From contig WGMF01000032.1 of assembly GCA_016125215.1 (NCBI GenBank), forward strand, positions 1-64,000: a stretch of 64,000 bases of DNA, written 5' to 3'. A program made the translations under genes and the position numbers. The notes beneath the pieces were generated by a model. That model searched no databases, had not been told where the DNA came from, and saw only the letters and a program-made list of their open reading frames with translations. Origin of the DNA: Phycisphaera sp. (GTDB lineage: Bacteria; Planctomycetota; Phycisphaerae; Phycisphaerales; Phycisphaeraceae). Below, piece after piece: positions 32,192-59,026 of this stretch (position 1 is its first letter; the number at the start of each line of letters is the position of its first letter).

Positions 32192-32631
32192 CGCGAGGAG
32201 CCCTCCTTGTCCGGTTCTTCCGTCTCGATGCTCAGGGCATCGATCATGCCGACGACGACGCCGGTCACCACGAGCATGACGCCCAGGTCAAACACCATGA
32301 CCGTGGCCCACTCGAAATTGTCGAACGCATCGGACAGGTAGCCATGGTTGGAAGTGAAGAAGGGCAGGCCAAAGAACAAAGCCGCCGTACCCGTGCCGAC
32401 GGCACAGAGCAGGCCGATGGCGATCATGGTGCGTTCACGGATGGGCAACATGCGTTCGAGGCTCTTGCCGCCCATCGCCATGCGGTGGACGACGAGGGAG
32501 ACGGAGGCCACGAGACCGCCGACGAACCCGCCGCCGGGCGTCTGGTGGCCCTTGAAGTAGATGAAGAACGCGAACAGCAGCCCGAGTGGGACGATGAAGC
32601 GCGACGCTGTGCGGAGGATGGTCGTGCTCAT
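32188..32631 (-). CDS. mrpB: Mrp cation/proton antiporter subunit B
   Basis: 147 residues of the MnhB family with four membrane helices. FIYFKGHQTPGGGFVGGLVAS is its signature. It starts within the end of mrpA (4-base overlap) and overlaps mrpC by 4 bases, so A-B-C are translationally coupled. Confidence 0.95.
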   Translation of the reverse strand: MSTTILRTASRFIVPLGLLFAFFIYFKGHQTPGGGFVGGLVASVSLVVHRMAMGGKSLERMLPIRERTMIAIGLLCAVGTGTAALFFGLPFFTSNHGYLSDAFDNFEWATVMVFDLGVMLVVTGVVVGMIDALSIETEEPDKEGSSR

Positions 32632-35402
32632 GTCGGCGAACCCTCCGTGACAAGCTCGCGATCGTCTTCGGGGTCTTCACTTGGATCGTTTCGTTCGACG
32701 CTCTTGTTGGGCTGTGAGGCTTGATGATTCCCCTTCCGGGGGTGTCGGCGGAGCAGCGTCCAGACGCCCATGGCCGCCAGGCCCAGCACGGTGATCTCGC
32801 CCATGGTGTCGAAACCACGGAAGTCGACGAGGATGACGTTGACGACGTTGGCCCCACCGCCACCTTTGTGAAGTGTTACAGAGGGATCACCCCGAGTTTC
32901 CGGTGCGTCTTCGTGAGAACTTCCGGGGGTGCCGTAGCCCGTGCGGTGCGCGACGCCTCGGTCCACCACGCCACCGTAGACTTGTTCGGGTTCGACTTCC
33001 AAGGTGTCTTGGGAGTGGTAGCTGTTGCGGAGGAAGTATTCGCCGAGGTTGGCCAGGTTCACGCCCTCCCGCGTGGTGTAAGGCATGGTTGGCTGGTGGC
33101 CAACGGAACTCGTCAAAGTGAGCCAGAACGATGCGATGCCTATCGCTGCCGCGATGAGCAAGCGAATGGGCACATAGATCGGCTTGCCCACCTTGCGGTC
33201 GGGCAGCAGACTGAGTACGAGCAGGAACAGGATCAACGAAACAATTTCAATACTGATCTGCGTCAGTGCCAGGTCGGGGGCTTGATACAAGTAATAGACC
33301 GCTGTGACCGAAAAGCCGGCTGTACCCAGGACGAGCACGCGGGCGGCACGGTCCTTGACGATAGGCATGAGCACGGTGGCGACGGCCACGATGGTCACGA
33401 TCAGGTAGCCCGGCAATAGGTCGCCCACCGGTTCGAGCACCGCGCCGGTCGGCCAACGGATCAACTCGGGATGGAAGCTCACCGCCCAGGCAAAAAGGGC
33501 AAATATGCCGAGTGTTACCGCCCCGACGTAGAACCCCGCGTGGCCCCTCTGGACCAGTCCGAAGGCCCACGGTCCGAGTTTCTTGGTCACACCGGTGTAA
33601 AAACCGGGGTACAGGTGGTCGAACGGGTCGGCGTAAATTTTTCGGAGCACGGGCGAAAGCCCCAGCCCCATGCCGAGAACGACGCACGCCAAACTCATGT
33701 ATACCGGGGGCGTCGAGAAACTCGGGATCATGGGGAAATGCTCGAAATAGTATTTCGAGGGTTCAAGCCAGCCAAATAGTAATTCATAAGCGCCGGGGAC
33801 CAGGCCACAGATGAATTGAAAGGCGACGATGACCGCCCCCGGTATCCACAAAAACGCGGGCCAGAGGCCGGTCTCATGGCTGTGCCCGTCGTGTGCGTGC
33901 GCGTGACCGGTGTGCGCGTGACCATTTCCATTGCCGTGGCCGTGTGCCGCTTCGTGAACGTGCGTGTGAATCTCGGGCCGGGCTGTGAGCGTGGTGAAGA
34001 GGCGTGTAAAGATGGCGACGTTGAACATGCCCGTGGCAATCCCGGCCGCGAAGAGGGGCCAGAACCATGCGCTGTGCGTGGCCTCGTAACCGTGATAAAT
34101 CTGGTAAAAAAAGAACTCTTTGGCGGTGAAGGAGAGCGTGCCGGGGAACGCGGCCAGGGCAAACGCGGCCGCGAGCAGCACGGTCGTCATGATCCGACTC
34201 GTGCGGTCGCGCCAGAAGAACCCGCGTAGTTCGGGGAGTTGTCTTGAAGCGACGTGCCCGATGGCCCCGGCGAGGATGAACAGCGGTGCCTTGTAGAAGG
34301 CGTGGTTGAGGATTTGAGTCACATCCCAGATCAGGTTCGGTTGCCCCAGGGCCGCGGCCAGTCCCTCGGCCCCGTGCTCGCCGTGCGCCCCGATGTGTTC
34401 CGCCCCGCTCCCGGTGGCGTGGTGGGCCACGAAGTTATACGCGCTCAAACCATACATACAGATGAGCAGTCCGAGTTGGCTGACGGTCGTGTAGGCAAAG
34501 ATCTGTTTGAGGTCTTCCTTACGCAGGGCGATGTAGGCCCCGTAGACCATGGTGATCGCGCCGATGGGGATGATGAGCTTGGGCCAGAGGGGAACCGCCG
34601 CGGCGAGGATGGGCCAGAGGCGTCCGGTGAGGTAGACGCCGGCCTTGACCATGGTGGCGGAGTGGAGATAAGCGGACACGGGCGTCGGGGCTGCCATGGC
34701 CCCGGGAAGCCAGAAATGAAGCGGGAATTGGGCACTTTTGGCCATCGCCCCGATGAAGATCAACACAAAAGCCGTGGTGGTCAGGCCATCCCCATGGACG
34801 CCTTGTTCAAGCAGGCCCGAGTAGGTCCATTGCCCGGTGTGTGCCCCGAGCAGGATCAGCCCGCCCATCATCGCCAACCCGCCCATCGCGGTGGTGACGA
34901 AGGCCTGCATTGCTTTTTTCACCGCCGCCGGGTCGTCGCGTTCCCAGCCAATCAATAGAAACGATGAAATCGACGTCATCTCCCAGAACAGGAGCATGAG
35001 CATGAAATTATCGGACAGCGCCACGCCGAGCATCGCGGTCATGAAGAGCAAGAGCGTCGGGTAAAAGCGGTAGAGGCTGTCGCGGTCCGGCCCGAAATAC
35101 GCCCGGGCGTAGAGCACGATGAGCAAGCCGATGCACGCCACGAGCAGCGCGAAGAACAACCCGAGTTTGTCTGGGTTGAGTGCGAGCTCGAGCTTGACGG
35201 TCGGCATCCACTCGACGGCGGGGGGGATCGAGCCCGTTCCGTGCGTGGCGATGTGCGACCCGATGAGCCAGATGGCGACCATCGGCCCGGCCAGAGCGAT
35301 GGCGACACGCAGCCCGATAATACGCCTCGGGACAATCAGGCTGACCAGCCCACAGACAAGCGGGGCAAAGATCGCAGTGGTGAGTAACCAGACCGGTGCC
35401 AT
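32628..35402 (-). CDS. mrpA: Mrp cation/proton antiporter subunit A
   Basis: The largest Mrp subunit, NuoL-like, with about 20 membrane helices: FWEMTSISSFLLIGWE, FPLHFWLPGAMAAPTPVSAYLHSATMVKAG, and a C-terminal MrpB-like part with VNVILVDFRGFDTMGEITVLG. The ATG at 35402 has GGAGG just upstream and gives 924 residues; an ATG at 35462 would add 20 mostly hydrophilic residues. A His/Gly-rich loop of about 33 residues at roughly 475-507 and a polar loop before the last domain are unusual. It drives Na+ export by proton uptake. Confidence 0.96.
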   Translation of the reverse strand: MAPVWLLTTAIFAPLVCGLVSLIVPRRIIGLRVAIALAGPMVAIWLIGSHIATHGTGSIPPAVEWMPTVKLELALNPDKLGLFFALLVACIGLLIVLYARAYFGPDRDSLYRFYPTLLLFMTAMLGVALSDNFMLMLLFWEMTSISSFLLIGWERDDPAAVKKAMQAFVTTAMGGLAMMGGLILLGAHTGQWTYSGLLEQGVHGDGLTTTAFVLIFIGAMAKSAQFPLHFWLPGAMAAPTPVSAYLHSATMVKAGVYLTGRLWPILAAAVPLWPKLIIPIGAITMVYGAYIALRKEDLKQIFAYTTVSQLGLLICMYGLSAYNFVAHHATGSGAEHIGAHGEHGAEGLAAALGQPNLIWDVTQILNHAFYKAPLFILAGAIGHVASRQLPELRGFFWRDRTSRIMTTVLLAAAFALAAFPGTLSFTAKEFFFYQIYHGYEATHSAWFWPLFAAGIATGMFNVAIFTRLFTTLTARPEIHTHVHEAAHGHGNGNGHAHTGHAHAHDGHSHETGLWPAFLWIPGAVIVAFQFICGLVPGAYELLFGWLEPSKYYFEHFPMIPSFSTPPVYMSLACVVLGMGLGLSPVLRKIYADPFDHLYPGFYTGVTKKLGPWAFGLVQRGHAGFYVGAVTLGIFALFAWAVSFHPELIRWPTGAVLEPVGDLLPGYLIVTIVAVATVLMPIVKDRAARVLVLGTAGFSVTAVYYLYQAPDLALTQISIEIVSLILFLLVLSLLPDRKVGKPIYVPIRLLIAAAIGIASFWLTLTSSVGHQPTMPYTTREGVNLANLGEYFLRNSYHSQDTLEVEPEQVYGGVVDRGVAHRTGYGTPGSSHEDAPETRGDPSVTLHKGGGGANVVNVILVDFRGFDTMGEITVLGLAAMGVWTLLRRHPRKGNHQASQPNKSVERNDPSEDPEDDRELVTEGSPT

Positions 35403-35581
35403 GAGCCTCCATGCGATGTTCCGCGACAGCCCAATCCAGCCGTCACGGGCTACGGATGTCATCGGTCGATAGGCGTTGCCTACTCAAACAACAGCGATCT
35501 GTCTGGCTGCCCCCGTTTCGGGCAGTCGAGCGTATCGCCGGGGCATGATAGGACCCAAACGACCCTGATCGACCCGAGAGT

Positions 35582-41218: not shown

Positions 41219-41944
41219 ATGGCGCTAGATGTATTACGTGGCGGTAAGCTCGACCGTATCTGGTTGGCGTTTCTGATCGTTACGGGGGGAATGTTGAGTG
41301 TGATTCTCGCAACGAGTGTTTTTGAAGCGACGGTATCTCTTTCTGGCATTCTGTGCGTAGGCTTGACAGCGATCGGTCGCCGTGAAGGATACCTCATCGG
41401 CATCTACAGCAGCCTCTCATATTCAATCTTGGCATACGGCAACGGACTTCTTGGAGAAGTTTACCTTAACCTATTGTTTTTTATACCAACGGGTGTCTTA
41501 GGTTATGTAATGTGGAATCGCCATACGAGGCAAGACATGACGGTGGAGATGCGGCAACTTGATTGGTCGCAGCGGATCATGGTCGCAGCCATATGTCTGG
41601 TATGCACGGTAGGACTCGGGTTCTTATTGCGGCTGAATCCTCACCAAAATACACCCTTCATTGACGCCACCACCAATGTACTGTCAGTAGTGGCTACATT
41701 CCTGATGATGTGGCGCTACAAAGAGCAGTGGTTGTTGTACATCTTGCTGAATATCGTCACGATCGGGATGTGGTTGTTGCGATTTATAGCAGGTGGAGCT
41801 GCAGGAGACTTGATGATCCTGATGTGGTCGTTATTTCTAATCAATGCGCTATTTGGATATTGGCGTTGGCACATAGGTACGAAAAAGGCTGAATCGACAT
41901 TTCCCTGTGTGAATGAAGGGGTTGAAATATGCAACGCGGACTAA
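41219..41944 (+). CDS. pnuC: PnuC-like nicotinamide riboside transporter
   Basis: 241 residues with about seven membrane helices: LVLSGILCV-type TVSLSGILCVGLTAIGRREGYLIG, VYLNLLFFIPTGVLGYVMW and a C-terminal WLLYILLNIVTIGMWLLRF, all PnuC features. It imports nicotinamide riboside by facilitated diffusion, trapped by the kinase encoded next door. AAGGA precedes the ATG. Base composition is clearly more AT-rich than the surroundings. It overlaps nadR by 16 bases. Confidence 0.92.
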   Translation: MALDVLRGGKLDRIWLAFLIVTGGMLSVILATSVFEATVSLSGILCVGLTAIGRREGYLIGIYSSLSYSILAYGNGLLGEVYLNLLFFIPTGVLGYVMWNRHTRQDMTVEMRQLDWSQRIMVAAICLVCTVGLGFLLRLNPHQNTPFIDATTNVLSVVATFLMMWRYKEQWLLYILLNIVTIGMWLLRFIAGGAAGDLMILMWSLFLINALFGYWRWHIGTKKAESTFPCVNEGVEICNAD

Positions 41945-42978
41945 CACTGGGCAAATTTGCTCCATTGCATCGTGGACACCAGATGCTTATTGAAACTGCA
42001 TTGGCCGAGGTGGACGAACTTATCGTAATGGTTTACGCCACGGACGTGATCGATGTGCCTTTACAGGTCCGAGCCGGCTGGATACGAGATCTGTATCCCA
42101 AGGTCCGGATCATCGAGGCATGGGACGGGCCGGAGGGTTATGGTAAGACTCCAGAGATCTGTCGCGAGCAGGAAAGCTACATCCTCAAGAAACTCAATGG
42201 AGTATCCATTACACATTTCTACTCCAGCGAGTTCTATGGCGACCATGTGAGCCTCGCTCTTGGCGCTGTAGACCGTAGAGTCGATGAATCGCGTACAACC
42301 GTCCCAATCAGTGGGACGGTTATACGAGAAGATTACTTTGCTAAGCGGCAGTATCTGGACCCTATTGTGTATGCCGATCTGGTCACAAAGGTCTGCTTCC
42401 TAGGTGCACCCTCAACGGGCAAGACGACGCTCGCAAAGACCATGGCTGATCAACACAATACATTATGGATGCCGGAATATGGTGCAGAGTATTGGCTTGA
42501 GCACCATGTTGACCGGCGAATTACACTGGATCAGTTTGAAGAGATCGCGCCAGAGCATAATAGTCGAGAGGATGTGTTGATCCAGCAGTCACGCAAATAC
42601 CTCTTTTGTGACACAAACCCGATCACAACATATGTCTTTGCGAAGGATTACCACGGCGGGGCGGTGGGTCCTGTTCTGACCCAAATGGCAAGGGATGCTG
42701 AAAAGCGATACGACTTATTCTTCCTTTGCGAAACGGATATTCCCTACGATAACACATGGGATCGTAGTGGAGACCAGAAGAGAAATTGGTTCCAGGATCA
42801 GATTGTTGACGATTTGGCCGAAAGGCATGTGCCGTATTTCAGGGTTCACGGGACATTAGAGGAACGGGTGTCTCAGGTTAACTGGATTCTCGGGCAGCAC
42901 CGCAAGTTTGGTAACGTGCTCGATATTCGACAGCATGGATCGGCAAACCATTGCCAACAATCTGACCAGAAGAGATGA
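41929..42978 (+). CDS. nadR: NadR: NMN adenylyltransferase / ribosylnicotinamide kinase
   Basis: 349 residues. The N-terminal nucleotidyltransferase has GKFAPLHRGHQ and ISGTVIRED. The C-terminal kinase has the P-loop GAPSTGKTTLAK (about 157-168). It phosphorylates nicotinamide riboside and adenylates NMN to give NAD. The DNA-binding repressor domain of enterobacterial NadR is absent, so it should be a pure enzyme. It overlaps pnuC (metabolic pair, translational coupling) and shares its AT-richer composition, suggesting joint acquisition. Confidence 0.95.
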   Translation: MQRGLTLGKFAPLHRGHQMLIETALAEVDELIVMVYATDVIDVPLQVRAGWIRDLYPKVRIIEAWDGPEGYGKTPEICREQESYILKKLNGVSITHFYSSEFYGDHVSLALGAVDRRVDESRTTVPISGTVIREDYFAKRQYLDPIVYADLVTKVCFLGAPSTGKTTLAKTMADQHNTLWMPEYGAEYWLEHHVDRRITLDQFEEIAPEHNSREDVLIQQSRKYLFCDTNPITTYVFAKDYHGGAVGPVLTQMARDAEKRYDLFFLCETDIPYDNTWDRSGDQKRNWFQDQIVDDLAERHVPYFRVHGTLEERVSQVNWILGQHRKFGNVLDIRQHGSANHCQQSDQKR

Positions 42979-43064
42979 GAGGTAAATCGGTTGCTGTGTC
43001 TGACCACGCCTTAAGATTTCTCAATGTAGTAACGAGGTTACATGCTTCTTTCAGCAACCATATA

Positions 43065-43382
43065 ATGCAAGACACTATCAATATAATCTTGCGATTATCA
43101 CCGACAGACAATGTCGCTATCGCTGTGGCACCGCTCGCGAGAGGCGATATTGTGATGTGTCAAGATATCGGCGTGTTGAACTTAATCGATAATATACCAT
43201 TGGGGCACAAGGTCGCGGTGCAGCCGATCAAGGCGGGCGAGAAGGCCATCAAGTTCGCCTGCCCGATCGGGTCTGCAACATGCGACATTCAAGTTGGTCA
43301 GCACGTCCACACGCACAACCTTAAGAGCGATTACCTGCCGACCTTCACGTTTGATCGCGGCAAGGAGTTCATCAAACCGTGA
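43065..43382 (+). CDS. UxaA-family dehydratase small subunit (SAF domain)
   Basis: 105 residues matching the N-terminal SAF domain of altronate/galactarate dehydratase: NVAIAVAPLARGD, NIPLGHKVAVQPIKAGEKAIKFACPIG and VGQHVHTHNL. In many bacteria it is fused to the catalytic part; here it is a separate gene overlapping the large subunit by 4 bases, as also seen in sulfolactate sulfo-lyase SuyAB. The start MQDTIN is chosen by family alignment; an upstream ATG at 42975 overlaps nadR. Its first third is AT-rich like nadR. Confidence 0.85.
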   Translation: MQDTINIILRLSPTDNVAIAVAPLARGDIVMCQDIGVLNLIDNIPLGHKVAVQPIKAGEKAIKFACPIGSATCDIQVGQHVHTHNLKSDYLPTFTFDRGKEFIKP

Positions 43383-44623
43383 CCCCCGGAAGTTTGCCAA
43401 ATACACAGGGTATATCAGGGTATTTGCGTTCTGACGGACGCAAGGGCATCCGGAATACCCTGATCGTGGTTTATCTGGTCGAGTGTGCCCACCACGTCGC
43501 GCGGGAGGTGATGACGCCTTACCGGGATCGAGGCGTGCAGCTTGCCGGTTTCCCGGGGTGCTACCCCAACGAATACGCCGACCGGGTGATGCGGGGTGTC
43601 TGCACACACCCCAACGTCGGCGCGGTGCTGCTCGTGTCGCTGGGCTGCGAGAGTTTCAACCGCACACGTTTAGAAGAAACGATCCGTGAATCGGGGCGCC
43701 CCGTGATGACGATGGTGATTCAGGAAGCCGGCGGCACACGCACAACGATTGACAAGGGACGGGCGTGGGTTAACCAGACCCTGTCGGTGATGGATCAAGA
43801 CGAACGTGTCCCGATGGGTATCGAAGAACTATGCATCGGGACGATCTGCGGGGGTTCGGACGCCACCAGCGGCCTGACCGCCAACCCGGTGGTGGGGCGG
43901 GTCTTTGACCGCCTTGTTGAGATGGGCGCCTGCGCGATTGTCGAAGAGACCAACGAGATGGTTGGGCTGGAAAAACAGCTTGCTGCGCGGGCCATCACGC
44001 CCGAGCTCGGCGAACAACTCGCGGCCTCGGTGGTCAAAGCCGAGGCGTATCAGAGGGTGCTGGGGCACGGCAGCTTTGCCCCCGGCAACGCCACGGGTGG
44101 GCTGACCACACAGGAGGAGAAATCCCTTGGCGCTTATATGAAAAGCGGCACCGGCCCCATCGCGGGCCTGCTCAAGCCCGGGCACCTCCCGCCCCGGCTG
44201 CACTCGCCAGAGGGCGGGCTTTACCTGCTTGACCTCGTGCCCGATGGTGATGTGCGATTCGGGTTCCCGAACATCTCGGACAACGCCGAGGCTGTGGACC
44301 TAATCTCGTGCGGAGCGCACATGATTTTGTTCACCACGGGTCGGGGCAGTGTCGTCGGGTCGGCGGTGTCGCCTATCGTCAAGGTCTGTGCCAACCCGGA
44401 GACTTACCGAAAGCTCAGCGGGGACATGGACATCGATGCGGGTCGCATCCTTGATGGCGGGGGCACAATCGAGGGTGTCGCCGATGAACTGCTCAACAAA
44501 GTGGTGTCTGTCGCGTCGGGTGAGCCGACCGTCTCCGAGGCACTGGGGCATCAGGAATTTATCCTGGGTTACAAGCGATTCGAGCCGTTGGGCCCCGCGT
44601 GTCTGCCGGTGGTGGCAAGATGA
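43379..44623 (+). CDS. UxaA-family dehydratase large subunit (altronate/galactarate dehydratase or sulfolactate sulfo-lyase type)
   Basis: 414 residues: GYLRSDGRKGIRN, GFPGCYPNEYADRVM, VSLGCESFN, CGGSDATSGLTANPVVG and a C-terminal IVKVCANPETYRKLSGDMDI. These mark the UxaA/GarD catalytic domain, which uses iron to dehydrate sugar acids. SuyB (sulfolactate cleavage) has the same fold, and the split gene layout fits it too, so the substrate is open. It starts with GTG inside the small subunit's stop. The first codons contain an exact CCCCCGGAAGTT (43383). Confidence 0.85.
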   Translation: MTPGSLPNTQGISGYLRSDGRKGIRNTLIVVYLVECAHHVAREVMTPYRDRGVQLAGFPGCYPNEYADRVMRGVCTHPNVGAVLLVSLGCESFNRTRLEETIRESGRPVMTMVIQEAGGTRTTIDKGRAWVNQTLSVMDQDERVPMGIEELCIGTICGGSDATSGLTANPVVGRVFDRLVEMGACAIVEETNEMVGLEKQLAARAITPELGEQLAASVVKAEAYQRVLGHGSFAPGNATGGLTTQEEKSLGAYMKSGTGPIAGLLKPGHLPPRLHSPEGGLYLLDLVPDGDVRFGFPNISDNAEAVDLISCGAHMILFTTGRGSVVGSAVSPIVKVCANPETYRKLSGDMDIDAGRILDGGGTIEGVADELLNKVVSVASGEPTVSEALGHQEFILGYKRFEPLGPACLPVVAR

Positions 44624-44847
44624 TCCTGCATCGGATGTCGTTGCTGGCAGTTGTGTGGCAAGCCCGGCTGATTCTGATCGTGGGTGGCTGAGGGTGGATC
44701 CCTCACTCCGTGAACCCCTGCGCTCTTCATGCGTCAGACTCATGACGCGGCGCGTGGTTTGTCGGTACTACACGGCAGAGGTATCTTGCATGGACGGTAG
44801 TCGCCCGACGGGTCGGGGCATCTCTTTACGTCACTCGGGAGGTCGAT

Positions 44848-46428
44848 ATGTCGGATCACCAGATCAAGCACGATGAGGGCGGTGGGATGGACCCACTCCC
44901 GCACCACCACATCGATCCCCGTACCAACCCATACGACTGGCCGCTGCGGAAGATCGGGCGGTGGTCGGTTGTGTTATTGATCCTGCTGGCGATTCTTTTT
45001 TCGCCGGTCTGGGTCTGGTACTGGTGGCGGATCGAGCCGGGGCCGAATGAGCTGGCCATCCTCATCCGCAAGACCGGCCGGGACCTGCCCTCGGGCCAGA
45101 TCATCGCCACGTCGCCCGACCACAAGGGCATCCAGCTCTTGCCGCTCAAGAGTGGGCGCTATTTCTATAACCCCTACACGTGGGACTGGCGCATCGTGCC
45201 GATGACCGATATCCCCGCGGGTAAACTCGGCGTGCTCACGAGGCTCTACGGCTCGGACTCGCCGACGGGTGACATCCTTGTGGACGAGGGCTTCAAGGGC
45301 ATCGTGCGCGACGTGCTCCCGCCGGGCAAGCATGTCATCAACACCTACGCCTACAGTGTCCAGCTCTTCGATGCCGTCACGGTGCGGCCGGGGAACGTCG
45401 GGGTGCGCGTCTCGCTTGTTGGCCGTGACACGCTGGAAAAAAGCCTGCCCGAAACCAGCGGCGGCCAGCTCACCGTCAGCCCCGGCATCAAGGGCGTGTT
45501 GCGTGACGTGCTCGACCCCGGCACCTACTACCTCAACCCTTACGAGTTCACCGTCATCGAGGTCAACCTCCAGAGCCAGCGCTTCGAGATGACCGGCGAA
45601 GACGCGATCAGCTTCCTCACCATCGATGGCTTTACCGTCCACGTCGAGGGCACCATTGAGTATGCGATCCAGCGCGAGATGGCAGCCGAGCTCACGCACC
45701 GCGTCGGCGACATGGAGGACATCCTCAAGAAAGTCATCCTGCCGCGCGCCCGTGGGTTTAGCCGAATCGAGGGCAGCAAGAGCCCCGCGATCAACTACAT
45801 CGTCGGCGAGACGCGGCAGCAGTTCCAGGACAACCTCGAGAGCCACCTGCGTGACCAGTGTGCCTCGTGGGGCGTGCTGGTGAAGTCGGTCTTGATCCGC
45901 AACATCTCTCCGCCGGACCAGATCGCCAGCATCATCCGTGACCGTGAGGTGGCGGTGCAGGACGCCAAGAAGTTCGAGCAACAGATCGAACAGGCCCGCT
46001 CGCAGGCTGAACTCACCAAGCAGGAGATGCTCGCCGTCCAGAACAGCGAGAAGGTCAAGGCCGATACGACGCTCAAGCGTGCGATCATCCAGGCGCAGCA
46101 GGACCAGGCGGTGCGCTTGCTCGAAGCGTCGAAGCGACTGGAAGTGGCCAAGCTCGAAAACGACGCCGCCACCGCGCAGGCCGAGGCGATGCGGCTCGAC
46201 GCCGGTGCCGAGCAATCGGTCATCCGCCTCAAGAACGAAGCCGAGGCCGCCGTCATCGCAAGCCAGGTCAAGGCGTTCGGCAACGGGCTAAACCTGGCGC
46301 GTTACGAGATGTACCGCAAGCTCGCGCCGCGCATCGGTTCGATCCTCACCAGCGACGACCCGCAGGGTTTGGGGGGCTGGTTCCGTGCCCTATCACCTGC
46401 AAGCCCGCTCAAGGAGGTCCAGCCATGA
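44848..46428 (+). CDS. Membrane-anchored SPFH (prohibitin-like) protein with three N-terminal repeats, 1
   Basis: 526 residues. A membrane helix lies at 40-60. Three tandem units (about 67-118, 126-177, 183-240) share the pattern LGVL..G....G......KGI...VL.PG.Y..NPY. An SPFH/band-7 domain covers about 241-365 (IDGFTVHVEGTIEYAIQ, then VLIRNISPPDQIASIIRDREVA), followed by an Ala/Glu/Lys-rich coiled coil to about 470. SPFH proteins form large ring- or cage-like membrane scaffolds. GGGAGG precedes the ATG. The next gene encodes a paralogue and overlaps by 4 bases, suggesting a hetero-oligomer. Confidence 0.9.
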   Translation: MSDHQIKHDEGGGMDPLPHHHIDPRTNPYDWPLRKIGRWSVVLLILLAILFSPVWVWYWWRIEPGPNELAILIRKTGRDLPSGQIIATSPDHKGIQLLPLKSGRYFYNPYTWDWRIVPMTDIPAGKLGVLTRLYGSDSPTGDILVDEGFKGIVRDVLPPGKHVINTYAYSVQLFDAVTVRPGNVGVRVSLVGRDTLEKSLPETSGGQLTVSPGIKGVLRDVLDPGTYYLNPYEFTVIEVNLQSQRFEMTGEDAISFLTIDGFTVHVEGTIEYAIQREMAAELTHRVGDMEDILKKVILPRARGFSRIEGSKSPAINYIVGETRQQFQDNLESHLRDQCASWGVLVKSVLIRNISPPDQIASIIRDREVAVQDAKKFEQQIEQARSQAELTKQEMLAVQNSEKVKADTTLKRAIIQAQQDQAVRLLEASKRLEVAKLENDAATAQAEAMRLDAGAEQSVIRLKNEAEAAVIASQVKAFGNGLNLARYEMYRKLAPRIGSILTSDDPQGLGGWFRALSPASPLKEVQP

Positions 46429-48197
46429 GAGCACATACGATCTTTTCAGGACTGGTCCGAGTGGTGGTGATCTGTGCGATCCTTTACGCCGTCTGGCTCT
46501 GGGGCTTCTGCAGGTTCTACGTCCCGCCCGACCACATGGCCATCGTCATCGCCCGCACCGGCTCGCCCCTCCCGGCCGACCGCATCCTTGCCAAAACCGG
46601 GGAGATCGGCATACGCGAACAGGTGCTCGGCGAGGGCCGACACTTCCTCAACCCCTGGCTCTACGACCACGAGATCATGGACCTGATCGAGGTCCCCAGC
46701 GGCAAGGTCGGCATCGTCACGTCGAAAGTCGGCAGCGCTTTGCCTGTGGGTGAATTCCTCGCCGACGCCGGGCAAAAGGGCATTCAACGACAAGTGCTCG
46801 GCCCCGGCAAGTACCGCCTCAACCCCTACGGCTACCGCATCGATATGGCCGACGCCGTGAGCATCCCCATCGGGTACGTCGGTGTCGTCACCTCGCTCTC
46901 CGGTGAGAAAGCCCCCGACGGCGATTTCGCTTCGGGCAATCAAAAAGGCATCCGCTCCGACGTGCTCCAACCCGGACTCTACTACATCAACCCCAAGCAG
47001 TTCAAGATCGACGTGCTCGAGATCGGCGTCAACCAGGTCTCGCTCCTCGGGAAGATCGGCACAGAGGTCATCACCAAGTCGCTCGGCGGTTTCGGCGGCA
47101 ACGAAGCCATCGGGCAACTCACCTACAACACGCTGCAGGAACGCAATGTCCAACGCGAAAACTACGCCCAGCAACAACTGGCCAACGTCGAAGACAAGCA
47201 GCAAGCCGACGAACTCCGCAACAGGCTCGCACAATCCAAGTCACGCGCGAACACCTACTGGAACTCCTCCGAACAGCAGGCGGTCAACGCCCCCGCGACG
47301 CAGCCGGGGTACATGCCGCCACAACAGGGGGCCGCGGCTCCGTCGTTCGTCCTCTCGCAGTTCGTCGAGTTCCCCTCACGCGACGGCTTCCAGATCAGCC
47401 TCGACATGACCGTCGAGTTTGAACTGCTCACCACCGACATCGCACGCATCTACCGGGACTACGGCGACCTCACGCTGGTGGTGGACAACATCATCATGCC
47501 CCAGGTCCTGAGCATCTCCCGCCTCAAAGGCTCGGCCTACCGCGCGACCGACTTCATCGTCGGCGAGGGACGCGAGAAGTTCCAGACCGACATCACCGAA
47601 GCGCTCAAGACCATCCTCAAGAACAAACGCATCGTCATCCACAACGCCCTGATCCGCCACGTCGAGGTCCCCGACCAGATCCTGGCTCCCATCCAGCAGA
47701 CCAGCATTGCCCTCGAACAGGAACTCACCATCAAGGAAAAACAGAACACCGCCAAGAAACAGGCGCAGCTCAACACCGAACTGAGCATGATCGACCAGAG
47801 CCGGGAGACCGTCGCACAGGAGACAAGCAAACTCACCGCCGAGATCAAAGCGGACCAGGAGAAACAGGTGGCCCAGATCAACGCCCAGACGCTCAAGAGT
47901 GTTGCCACGATCAACCAGGACATCGCCGGCGTCTTGGCACAGAAGGTCAAAAAGATCGGCCAGGCCCAGGCCGACGTCATCACGATGGTCGAGGGTGAAA
48001 AAGCCAAGGGCTTCGAACTCAAGGTCAGCGCCTTCGGCGACCCGTCGGGTTATGGCTTGTGGGAGATGGCCAAGGGCCTAAGCGACAAGATCACCGTCAA
48101 CATCTTCCACGCCGGCGAAGGCACCCTGTGGACTGATTTGAAGAATGCGGGCATCGCCGAACTCGGCGGGGCAAGTATGCTTAAGAAGGACAAGTAG
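46425..48197 (+). CDS. Membrane-anchored SPFH (prohibitin-like) protein with three N-terminal repeats, 2
   Basis: 590 residues, a paralogue of the preceding protein. Its membrane helix is at about 10-28. Three repeat units (about 37-85, 94-142, 151-198) include KGIQRQVLGPGKYRLNPYGY and KGIRSDVLQPGLYYINP. An insert of about 120 residues, rich in Gln and Asn, separates them from the SPFH domain (FQISLDMTVEFEL through IRHVEVPDQILAPIQQTSIA, about 315-425). A long coiled coil follows. AAGGAGG before the ATG lies inside the end of the first gene, so strong coupled translation is expected. Confidence 0.9.
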   Translation: MRAHTIFSGLVRVVVICAILYAVWLWGFCRFYVPPDHMAIVIARTGSPLPADRILAKTGEIGIREQVLGEGRHFLNPWLYDHEIMDLIEVPSGKVGIVTSKVGSALPVGEFLADAGQKGIQRQVLGPGKYRLNPYGYRIDMADAVSIPIGYVGVVTSLSGEKAPDGDFASGNQKGIRSDVLQPGLYYINPKQFKIDVLEIGVNQVSLLGKIGTEVITKSLGGFGGNEAIGQLTYNTLQERNVQRENYAQQQLANVEDKQQADELRNRLAQSKSRANTYWNSSEQQAVNAPATQPGYMPPQQGAAAPSFVLSQFVEFPSRDGFQISLDMTVEFELLTTDIARIYRDYGDLTLVVDNIIMPQVLSISRLKGSAYRATDFIVGEGREKFQTDITEALKTILKNKRIVIHNALIRHVEVPDQILAPIQQTSIALEQELTIKEKQNTAKKQAQLNTELSMIDQSRETVAQETSKLTAEIKADQEKQVAQINAQTLKSVATINQDIAGVLAQKVKKIGQAQADVITMVEGEKAKGFELKVSAFGDPSGYGLWEMAKGLSDKITVNIFHAGEGTLWTDLKNAGIAELGGASMLKKDK

Positions 48198-56205: not shown

Positions 56206-56964
56206 TTGCCCAACGATCTTGACGACCAGCTTGTGCAGAAGGTCATGCGTGGCGACACCGCGGCGCTGGGCACGTTGCTGCAATCCCAGCAGAAACGGCT
56301 GTATAACACCTGTCTGCGGATGGTCGGCAACCGAGACGACGCCGCCGAGATCACACAGGACGCGATGCTCAAGATCGTCGAGCACGCCGGGGATTTCCGC
56401 GGCCAGAGTCAGATCACCACGTGGATGACACGGATCGTGATGAACCTCTCGATCTCGCACCTGCGCAAGCGTCGGCTAAGGCAAACAGTGAGCCTCGATG
56501 GCCCGGCCGGGGGCAACGGTCACGGCTCGTCGGCCGGCTCGGGCGCGGGCTTTGGAGCGTATGGCGGCGGCCTGAATGCTTCAGGGAACTCTGCCGGGGG
56601 CGGGGACGCTTCCCGGGGGGGTTATGCGGACCAGGCCGGTGCCCTTCGCATGCAATTAGCGGATAACCGTGAACCCGGACCCGTCGAGAGCGTCCAAAAC
56701 CGTGAGCTGGTCGCTCATTTGAGAACCGCGCTGGACCGACTGGAAGAAGACTTCCGTGGCGTGCTGGTCCTGCGGGATATCGAACTGATGGACTACCAGC
56801 AGATCGCGGAAATCCTGGGCGTGCCAACGGGCACGGTCAAGAGCAGGCTCTTCCGCGCGCGCCTCGCGTTACGCCACGAGATGCTCAGGCTCTGTCCGCC
56901 CCCGACCAGACCCAAAGAAGCCAAGCCGACCCCCGCACAACAAGGCTTGCCCCAAGATGGCTGA
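56206..56964 (+). CDS. ECF-type RNA polymerase sigma factor
   Basis: 252 residues: sigma region 2 ([27 protein letters not shown], then [19 protein letters not shown]) and region 4 ([45 protein letters not shown]). Between them is an unusual Gly/Ser/Asn-rich linker of about 60 residues (roughly 97-158). The start appears to be TTG at 56206 because the family helix begins before the first ATG (56245). It overlaps the following anti-sigma gene by 8 bases, so they form a regulatory pair. Confidence 0.92.
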
Positions 56965-59026
56965 ACAGTACGACGAAAACCTGATCCTTGGCTACGTCGA
57001 GGGCGACCTCACGCACGAGCAGATGGTGCGCTTTGAGCAGCAGATGGTCGACGACGCACGCCTGCGCAACCTCGTCGCGCAGCTCATCCTCGACCGCCAC
57101 CACCTGCGTCACATGCCCGAAGAAGAGCCGCCGGCTGAATTGCTGGCTCTGGTCGAACCTCAGCTCGAAAGGCGGATGCTCCTGGGGGCAACCGACACCC
57201 CCGAGGCGATCCCGATTCGACCCCGCCGTGCCTGGCCCATGCTGCGCATCGGCTCGGGCCTGGCGGCCGCGGCGGCTATCGCGCTGGCGTTTGTCACCTT
57301 CTACAGACCCCTCACGCAGATCTCGACCGTGACCGAAAAAATGGCGGACCTGCCTATTGGCAAAAGCAACGATGAAAACACGGTGGGCAGCGGCGAGGCG
57401 GCGAAACCGGCGCGTGCATCGAATATTGAGGGTGACAAACAGGTTGACAAAGAAGTATCGAGGGGGTTTGTGGACAAGGCCATGAAGTCGTCCATGGAAA
57501 AGGCACCGTCCAAAACCGCGATGGCCTCCGCACCGCCATCGGCCACCGTGACCCCGCCGGATACCGCCCGGAGTAACACCGGGCTCGAGGGCACGAAGTT
57601 TGCGCTCGCCGACCGCGCCCGTGATACGGACTCCCTCGCTTGGGAACAACGCCCGGGCCAAAAAGAAACGATCGCCAGCAACGCCAGCGGTGGGGGGCTG
57701 CCCGGGGCCCGCCAGCCCGGTTCCGATGGGCCCGGCCGATTCACGACTCCGATGGCCGAGTCCACACGGGCCGGCGAGAAGGACGAGGTCCTTACCGATG
57801 GCTTGGCAAGCAAGGCCGCCGGCCAAGCCACGCCACCTGCTTATATGGGCAAATCGGGCATAGCCAAATCAGGCGCAGACAATTCGGGCATGAATAACAC
57901 GGCGTTAGATTCTCTTGCCAACGCAAACGACGCGGGGTCTACGGAGTTTTACGCGGATAAAAGCAAAGTCACGGACGACTTCTTGAAAGCCCAGAAAGGT
58001 TTCGATCAAACCGGCGATCCCGACCCGTCCACACAGGCGCTGGCCATGAAGAGTGTCGAGCGCCGGGATGCGGCCGAAGAGATGCCGCCGTCGCCATCCA
58101 CGCCTGTCAACCGGGAGCTACAACAGGAACTCAAACGCGAAACGCTCAGCGATGCGGAGCACGCCAACCTCGAGTTGCAGGTCCTCGTCACCCGTGAGGA
58201 CGAGGGCGAGCGTGCGGTGCTCAACTGGGCTTTAGCCAACAGCGTCACCACCGTCGTCCGCGACGAACCCGTCTACGATGTCGTGGAACAGTCCCCCGCC
58301 AAGGCTGCACAGGGCTTCAAGCTCGATGCCAATCAACCTGTCGAGGCAAAGGACTCTGACAACGCCGCCCGCAGGCAGGTCGCACAATTACGGGCTCAGA
58401 CCGACGGCCGGGCACACAGCCGGGCACAGGAAATAACACAGGGCAAGATGCGGGCAGAAGAAAAGAAGCCCGCCCGGCAGATGGTTCTGCTCATCCAGGC
58501 TGAGCAGGTCCCCGAGCTTGTCGCACACCTCAACGCCCAGGTCGCGTCGAACCCGGTCGACACGCTCAACAAGAGACAGGCCCAGGGGGCCGTGCTCGGC
58601 GCCGCCGTGCTCGAACAGGGCCAAACGCTCAGCCCGATACAGACGCCCGCCTACTATCAAAGCCATACACAAGAATTCGAGGAGCAACACGCCGCGCTGG
58701 CGCTCAACACCACTCAGTGGGGCAACCGCATCGAAAGACAAGTCCCCTTCCTCACCCGCGCGATGCCGTACCTCGACAAGAAAAAAACCCTCTACCTCCC
58801 CGTCGTCTTCGAACTCGTCGACGCCCCCCCGCCCCCGGAAGATGCCCAGACCCCGGAAGATGCCCAGACCCCGGAAGTTTTCCCGAACGTGGCCGCTAAA
58901 GTTGCCCCTGAAGTTGCCGCCGAGGCAACCGATGTCAAAACGCAGGCAGCACCCGCACTCGACTCACCCGCCGAGACAGCCGCATCCAAACCCGGTGCGG
59001 ACACCGAGCCGGCCAAGGGCAAGTGA
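56957..59026 (+). CDS. Probable membrane anti-sigma factor with large periplasmic domain
   Basis: 689 residues. The N-terminal 60 residues (NLILGYVEGDLTHEQMVRFEQQM) resemble anti-sigma cytoplasmic domains without the zinc HC2 motif. One membrane helix (GSGLAAAAAIALAFVTFY) is near 97-115. The rest is outside: a low-complexity Ser/Thr/Asn/Gly region to about 400, a domain containing VLVTREDEGERAVLNWALANS, and a Pro/Ala-rich tail with the tandem unit PEDAQT. It probably holds the sigma factor at the membrane. The very large outer region suggests direct sensing of an envelope signal. Confidence 0.75.
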   Translation: MAEQYDENLILGYVEGDLTHEQMVRFEQQMVDDARLRNLVAQLILDRHHLRHMPEEEPPAELLALVEPQLERRMLLGATDTPEAIPIRPRRAWPMLRIGSGLAAAAAIALAFVTFYRPLTQISTVTEKMADLPIGKSNDENTVGSGEAAKPARASNIEGDKQVDKEVSRGFVDKAMKSSMEKAPSKTAMASAPPSATVTPPDTARSNTGLEGTKFALADRARDTDSLAWEQRPGQKETIASNASGGGLPGARQPGSDGPGRFTTPMAESTRAGEKDEVLTDGLASKAAGQATPPAYMGKSGIAKSGADNSGMNNTALDSLANANDAGSTEFYADKSKVTDDFLKAQKGFDQTGDPDPSTQALAMKSVERRDAAEEMPPSPSTPVNRELQQELKRETLSDAEHANLELQVLVTREDEGERAVLNWALANSVTTVVRDEPVYDVVEQSPAKAAQGFKLDANQPVEAKDSDNAARRQVAQLRAQTDGRAHSRAQEITQGKMRAEEKKPARQMVLLIQAEQVPELVAHLNAQVASNPVDTLNKRQAQGAVLGAAVLEQGQTLSPIQTPAYYQSHTQEFEEQHAALALNTTQWGNRIERQVPFLTRAMPYLDKKKTLYLPVVFELVDAPPPPEDAQTPEDAQTPEVFPNVAAKVAPEVAAEATDVKTQAAPALDSPAETAASKPGADTEPAKGK
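58837..58879 (+). repeat. 18-base tandem repeat in the anti-sigma gene
   Basis: CCGGAAGATGCCCAGACC occurs twice plus a partial third copy, encoding PEDAQT PEDAQT PEV. The units also carry the CCCCGGAAG core of the window's over-represented word. Confidence 0.7.

What the first reader, a model, noticed from the sequence alone, without database searches (positions are those of the whole stretch)
44848..48197. Paired SPFH proteins with vault-like architecture
Two adjacent, overlapping genes each encode a membrane helix, three tandem units of about 50-60 residues (pattern LGVV..G.....G......KGI...VL.PG.Y..NPY), an SPFH domain and a long coiled coil. The repeat pattern is read directly from both proteins, at 67-118, 126-177 and 183-240 in the first and 37-85, 94-142 and 151-198 in the second. 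Eukaryotic major vault protein is also built of N-terminal repeats of about 55 residues, an SPFH-like shoulder and a coiled-coil cap. The inference is a bacterial membrane-tethered, two-component vault- or cage-like assembly. Homology of the repeats to MVP repeats is not shown, only similarity of layout.
Basis: partly seen in the sequence, partly recalled or inferred. Interest (0 to 1): 0.75.

Follow-up and report, generated by a model that had tools for sequence, protein, structure and literature searches.

The report
Bacterial membrane-anchored vault-like SPFH pair
Two neighbouring bacterial genes encode membrane-anchored ring-forming (SPFH) proteins whose extra tandem modules are predicted to fold like the wall repeats of the eukaryotic vault particle, an architecture for which I found no description in bacteria.

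Summary
Genes A (44848-46428) and B (46425-48197) overlap by ATGA. Each encodes a membrane helix, three homologous units of about 57 residues, an SPFH domain and a long helix. All 81 A and 74 B orthologues scanned carry exactly three units, and the pair is adjacent in most loci across PVC phyla, Thermodesulfobacteriota and Competibacteraceae. In a confident AlphaFold2 model of A, only major vault protein (MVP) chains align across the whole protein in order: units 1-3, SPFH and helix match MVP residues about 321-768. Other SPFH cages (prohibitin, Erlin, HflK/C, QmcA) align only from about unit 3, which is therefore the ordinary SPFH1 hairpin; units 1 and 2 are the extra copies. B's three units folded alone match MVP repeats best (Z 9.5, 142 residues, 4.1 A), with unrelated folds at Z 3.5 or below. 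No sequence similarity to MVP was found, so common descent of the repeats is unproven. Best reading: a two-component, inner-membrane-anchored SPFH cage, probably periplasmic, with a wall lengthened by MVP-type modules (a 'half-vault on a membrane'). Assembly, location and function are inferred. New variant of a known kind; no published description found in the papers searchable here.

The parts
44837..44842 (+). Shine-Dalgarno-like GGGAGG, 5 bases before the ATG of gene A
   Evidence: sequence read directly
44848..46428 (+). Gene A: 526-aa multi-repeat SPFH protein
   Evidence: ORF; Band_7 3.4e-25; orthologues at 55-68% identity; AF2 model pLDDT 82.6
44938..45027 (+). A residues 31-60: single N-terminal membrane helix, positive charges on the N side
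   Evidence: AF2 helix 31-60; flank charges
45031..45204 (+). A repeat 1 (62-119), extra MVP-type beta module
   Evidence: repeat HMM 2.8e-22; within the MVP alignment that starts at model residue 58
45205..45375 (+). A repeat 2 (120-176), extra MVP-type beta module
   Evidence: repeat HMM 6.3e-24
45376..45570 (+). A repeat 3 (177-241) = N-terminal hairpin of the SPFH1 domain
   Evidence: repeat HMM 1.3e-19; SPFH cages other than MVP align from model residue ~176
45490..46008 (+). A SPFH / Band_7 match (215-387)
   Evidence: Pfam PF01145 3.4e-25
45916..46278 (+). A long helix (357-477), coiled-coil / cap-helix equivalent; low confidence around 402-417
   Evidence: AF2; hydrophobic period 6.9 over 357-405
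46425..48197 (+). Gene B: 590-aa multi-repeat SPFH protein, ATGA overlap with A
   Evidence: ORF; Band_7 8.2e-15; orthologues at 52-67% identity
46446..46505 (+). B N-terminal membrane helix (about residues 8-27)
   Evidence: hydrophobic stretch in sequence; N side more positive than C side in the ortholog set
46515..46685 (+). B repeat 1 (31-87)
   Evidence: repeat HMM 1.5e-22; AF2 pLDDT 93; MVP-like
46686..46856 (+). B repeat 2 (88-144)
   Evidence: repeat HMM 2.8e-27
46857..47024 (+). B repeat 3 (145-200) = SPFH1-position module
   Evidence: repeat HMM 6.7e-23
47037..47357 (+). B-specific insertion (about 205-311) between repeat 3 and SPFH2
   Evidence: gap in alignment to A; Band_7 match resumes at residue 312
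47358..47765 (+). B SPFH2 part of Band_7 (312-447)
   Evidence: Pfam PF01145 8.2e-15
47676..48044 (+). B coiled-coil region (about 418-540)
   Evidence: hydrophobic period 7.05 over 418-470; aligns with A's long helix at 26% identity

Best explanation
A and B are the two alternating subunits of a hetero-oligomeric SPFH cage anchored in the inner membrane by one N-terminal helix each, with the rest of the proteins on the outer (periplasmic) side. In ordinary SPFH cages the SPFH1 hairpin sits at the membrane. Here that hairpin has been duplicated, so two extra MVP-type three-stranded beta modules (repeats 1 and 2) stand between the membrane and the SPFH1/SPFH2 domains, and the long helices close the dome. 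Side by side, the repeats would form a straight wall as in the vault, giving a taller, half-vault-like chamber over a patch of membrane. Its job is most likely that of other SPFH cages: to enclose and segregate membrane proteins or lipids. Shown here: the repeats and their homology, the conserved gene pair, and the predicted monomer folds. Inferred: heteromeric ring, periplasmic side, wall formation and function.
For: Three homologous units in every orthologue scanned (81 A, 74 B). Orthologous units of A and B match best (R1-R1 3e-28, R2-R2 3.5e-30), so three units predate the A/B split. A is adjacent to B in 76 of 80 loci, 63 of them with a 4-base start/stop overlap, the layout of HflK/HflC-type heteromers. 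A forms one supported clade and B another. AF2 of A: repeats at pLDDT mostly 92-98. Foldseek's first match is MVP, E 1.2e-11. In the VIA re-alignment most MVP rows span model ~58-478 to MVP ~321-768, while other SPFH cages start at model ~176 or, for one stomatin chain, 139. B repeats alone (pLDDT 93): the top 13 PDB matches are MVP; Z 9.5, 142 residues, 4.1 A over all three repeats. One unit matches prohibitin SPFH1 at 1.3 A over 46 residues, 35% identity, and unrelated folds reach Z 3.5 at most. Flank charges favour N-terminus in, repeats out.
Against: No oligomer model or experiment was possible. The full-length alignment to MVP has very large rmsd (about 40-80 A) because the long hinged chain differs in overall bend, so only order and local fold match. 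No neighbouring gene is conserved that would point to a function or partner. B was modelled only for its repeats. In two loci (L114, L117) B was not found although there is room on the contig.
Confidence: 0.62

Rival explanations
1. An ordinary divergent HflK/HflC pair that modulates FtsH, with a slightly longer N-terminal part of no structural consequence.
For: Same gene-pair layout; weak hflK match of A (31 bits); SPFH domain and coiled coil shared.
Against: Far below the hflK cut-off of 159.4 bits. The genome carries a separate pair on contig C5 that scores much better against hflC and hflK (119.5 and 87 bits). Two extra conserved modules with a confident MVP-like fold. No ftsH was seen among the recurrent neighbours.
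Confidence: 0.2
2. The repeats act as monomeric or lateral spacers or binding modules (a stalk carrying the SPFH dome away from the membrane or binding envelope components), not as a continuous vault-like wall.
For: Single units match SPFH1 hairpins; the inter-subunit packing of the repeats is untested; unit number varies from 3 to 5 in single-gene cousins.
Against: The whole three-repeat array, including unit-to-unit placement, superposes on MVP at about 4 A, and MVP repeats do form the wall (PMC13347060).
Confidence: 0.15

Closest known systems
Major vault protein (eukaryotic vault; PDB 9r86, 4hl8, 3gf5)
   Same: Tandem three-stranded beta modules, then SPFH-like shoulder, then long cap helix, in the same order; best structural match for B's repeats alone and the only family matching the full span of the A model.
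   Different: Two extra modules plus the SPFH1 one instead of nine; N-terminal membrane helix; two different subunits; no detectable sequence similarity; MVP is reported to lack membrane-associating motifs (PMC13100048).
HflK/HflC (periplasmic SPFH cage around FtsH)
   Same: Two adjacent paralogous genes, N-terminal membrane helix, SPFH domain and coiled coil; likely the same membrane side.
   Different: Fails the hflK/hflC models; two additional beta modules before SPFH1; a better-scoring HflK/C-like pair exists elsewhere in the genome.
Prohibitin PHB1/2, Erlin, stomatin, QmcA
   Same: SPFH1+SPFH2+helix align from A residue ~176 (139 for one stomatin chain) onward; a single repeat equals the SPFH1 hairpin of prohibitin (1.3 A, 35% identity).
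   Different: They have one such hairpin, not three.
Single-gene multi-repeat SPFH proteins in Planctomycetota (L009-L019)
   Same: Same repeat family; 3, 4 (L016) or 5 (L011) units before the SPFH domain; in an SPFH tree they fall outside the A and B clades.
   Different: In one search each such genome gave one such gene, without an adjacent A/B-type partner; two N-terminal hydrophobic stretches in several; spacer insertions in the middle units.

Membership tests
SPFH superfamily | Band_7/SPFH domain above the Pfam cut-off | tested here: met
   A 89.5 bits, B 55.7 bits, cut-off 23.6
SPFH superfamily | N-terminal membrane anchor and coiled coil after the SPFH domain | tested here: met
   AF2 helices 31-60 and 357-477 in A; sequence of B and heptad period
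SPFH superfamily | assembly into a ring or cage | not testable with these tools
   only monomers could be predicted
Major vault protein | Vault repeat / shoulder Pfam models match | tested here: not met
   no Vault or shoulder family in the hits for P0001/P0002 at E<1, nor among the 25 most-matched families of 39 members at E<10
Major vault protein | sequence homology of repeats to MVP repeats | tested here: not met
   hhalign scores equal to shuffled MVP; hmmsearch of PDB sequences gives no MVP. The MVP side was a thin profile (human and rat only)
Major vault protein | fold and order: tandem three-stranded beta repeats, SPFH shoulder, cap helix | tested here: met
   predicted structure:
Major vault protein | nine repeats, no membrane-associating motif, full vault of two half-shells | tested here: not met
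   three repeats and a membrane helix; dimerisation of halves not testable
HflK / HflC | above NCBIfam equivalog cut-off for hflK or hflC | tested here: not met
   A 31 bits against 159.4 (hflK) and 11.7 against 134.4 (hflC); B no hit to either
HflK / HflC | two adjacent paralogous subunits | tested here: met
   adjacent A and B in 76 of 80 loci
HflK / HflC | binding to FtsH | not testable with these tools
   needs a pull-down

The most novel reading that the evidence does not exclude
A and B are living relatives of the kind of membrane-anchored SPFH cage from which the eukaryotic vault arose: MVP's nine repeats and these repeats are the same SPFH1-derived module, amplified in tandem, and the bacterial complex is a true membrane-bound half-vault.
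Probability: 0.25. Interest if true: 0.9.

Novelty: new variant of a known kind. Interest (0 to 1): 0.72.

Why it matters
The vault's origin and function are open questions, and a 2026 paper describes its repeat (MVP) domains as unique to the vault (PMC13100048). Here the same predicted fold, in the same order before an SPFH domain, occurs in a bacterial family on proteins that still have a membrane anchor. It offers a simple route to the vault wall (tandem copying of the SPFH1 hairpin) and a small system in which the purpose of a longer SPFH wall can be tested.

Tried and rejected
Sequence homology to MVP by hhalign, HMMER and Pfam: none found. MVP itself in this phylum: PF01505 above cut-off in 0 of 294 genomes. 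MVP relatives in viral contigs: none. Viral structure library for B's repeats: nothing at E<=0.001. Conserved neighbours as a clue to function: none; a response regulator or kinase gene lies among the next three genes downstream in only five loci. Copy number from CC1 length (regression in PMC12624060, section 12): the modelled helix has a low-confidence stretch at 402-417, so any value from about 18 to 32 could be argued and none is claimed. Weak dUTPase match of one hairpin motif (E 0.1): taken as chance or convergence.

Full report
OBSERVATION. A repeat HMM made from orthologues finds three units in each: A 62-119, 120-176, 177-241 and B 31-87, 88-144, 145-200, at 63-88 bits each against at most 14.5 bits in all for the best of 2000 shuffles of A's repeat region. 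The six units are homologous by profile comparison (E 1e-8 to 1e-30), and the two strongest matches are position to position between A and B. The three-unit layout therefore existed before A and B split. A and B are 36% identical over the membrane helix and repeats and 26% over SPFH and coiled coil.

DOMAINS. Pfam gives only Band_7 (A 215-387, B 312-447). The match in A starts inside unit 3, so unit 3 is the start of the SPFH domain. The model of A agrees: membrane helix 31-60, three beta units, SPFH alpha/beta part, then a helix at 357-477 (pLDDT mostly 92-98 in the repeats). B has an extra segment of about 105 residues between unit 3 and SPFH2. The flanks of both membrane helices carry more net positive charge on the N side, which favours repeats and SPFH on the periplasmic side, as in HflK/C. 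This is an inference.

DISTRIBUTION. A scan of species genomes found 145 relatives of A. The 80 kept loci lie in Verrucomicrobiota, Kiritimatiellota, Lentisphaerota, Planctomycetota, Thermodesulfobacteriota, Competibacteraceae and a few others, including cultured Pontiella sulfatireligans and Desulfopila aestuarii. B was found next to A in 76 of 80 loci, and 63 of those have a 4-base start/stop overlap. All 81 A and 74 B sequences examined, the window's included, have exactly three units. In a sample of 294 genomes of the window's phylum, 66 hold a multi-repeat SPFH protein. Single-gene cousins carry three, four (L016) or five (L011) units. In the tree, A and B form two supported clades that each mix several phyla, consistent with lateral spread of the pair, although inner resolution is low. 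No neighbour gene is conserved.

STRUCTURE COMPARISON. Foldseek with full-length A returns MVP first (9r86, E 1.2e-11). VIA-align shows the key contrast. Most MVP chains align from model residue ~58 to ~478 with MVP ~321 to ~768, so the repeats pair with the last MVP repeats, SPFH with the shoulder and the helix with the cap helix. Prohibitin, Erlin, HflK/C, QmcA and flotillin start at model residue ~176, and one stomatin chain at 139. The overall rmsd to MVP is very large because the chain bends differently, so this result stands on order and local fold. To remove the SPFH domain from the question I folded B's three repeats alone (pLDDT 93). The first 13 PDB matches are MVP. VIA gives Z 9.5 with 142 residues at 4.1 A across all three repeats, and full-array MVP rows down to Z 6.8. 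Prohibitin and Erlin match one unit only (prohibitin 46 residues, 1.3 A, 35% identity, Z 7.1). Unrelated folds reach Z 3.5 at most. The repeat is thus the SPFH1 hairpin module, and the tandem array is MVP-like.

WHAT IS NOT SHOWN. By sequence the repeats do not match MVP: no Vault Pfam model, hhalign equal to shuffled controls (the MVP profile there was human and rat only, the sequence checked), no MVP among PDB sequence matches. The units are closer to each other (E 1e-8 to 1e-30) than to canonical SPFH1 sequences (best about 2e-5). That allows two histories: one common tandem ancestor with MVP, or parallel amplification of the same hairpin. My data do not decide between them. No oligomer was predicted.

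MECHANISM. The best-supported picture is an A/B alternating SPFH dome on the inner membrane whose wall is lengthened by two MVP-type modules per subunit, a half-vault-like chamber over a membrane patch. Sequestration of membrane proteins or lipids is the role discussed for related cages (PMC12624060) and is assumed here. An HflK/C-FtsH role is less likely: A scores 31 bits against an hflK cut-off of 159.4, and the genome has another, better-scoring HflK/C-like pair on contig C5.

NOVELTY. I found no report of this architecture, but subscription papers and preprints were not searchable. I rate it a new variant of a known kind (SPFH cages), with a possible bearing on the origin of vaults.

Noticed in passing
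window 41219-42978: Overlapping genes for a nicotinamide mononucleotide transporter (PF04973) and a NadR-like protein with AAA_28 and cytidylyltransferase domains: an NAD-salvage pair upstream of the finding.
   Followed up: partly
window 42975-44623: Galactarate/altronate dehydratase split over two overlapping genes: SAF domain (135 aa) and second plus C-terminal domains (414 aa), directly upstream of gene A.
   Followed up: partly
window 32628-35462 (-): 944-aa protein with proton-antiporter and MbhD/MbhE domains fused in one chain (Mrp-type antiporter fusion).
   Followed up: no
window 56957-59026 (+): 689-aa ORF with no Pfam match at E 0.001.
   Followed up: no
L011:659-2803 (-); L016:721-3021 (+): Single-gene SPFH proteins with five and four MVP-type units before the SPFH domain, i.e. 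nearer to the vault in unit number than the window pair.
   Followed up: partly
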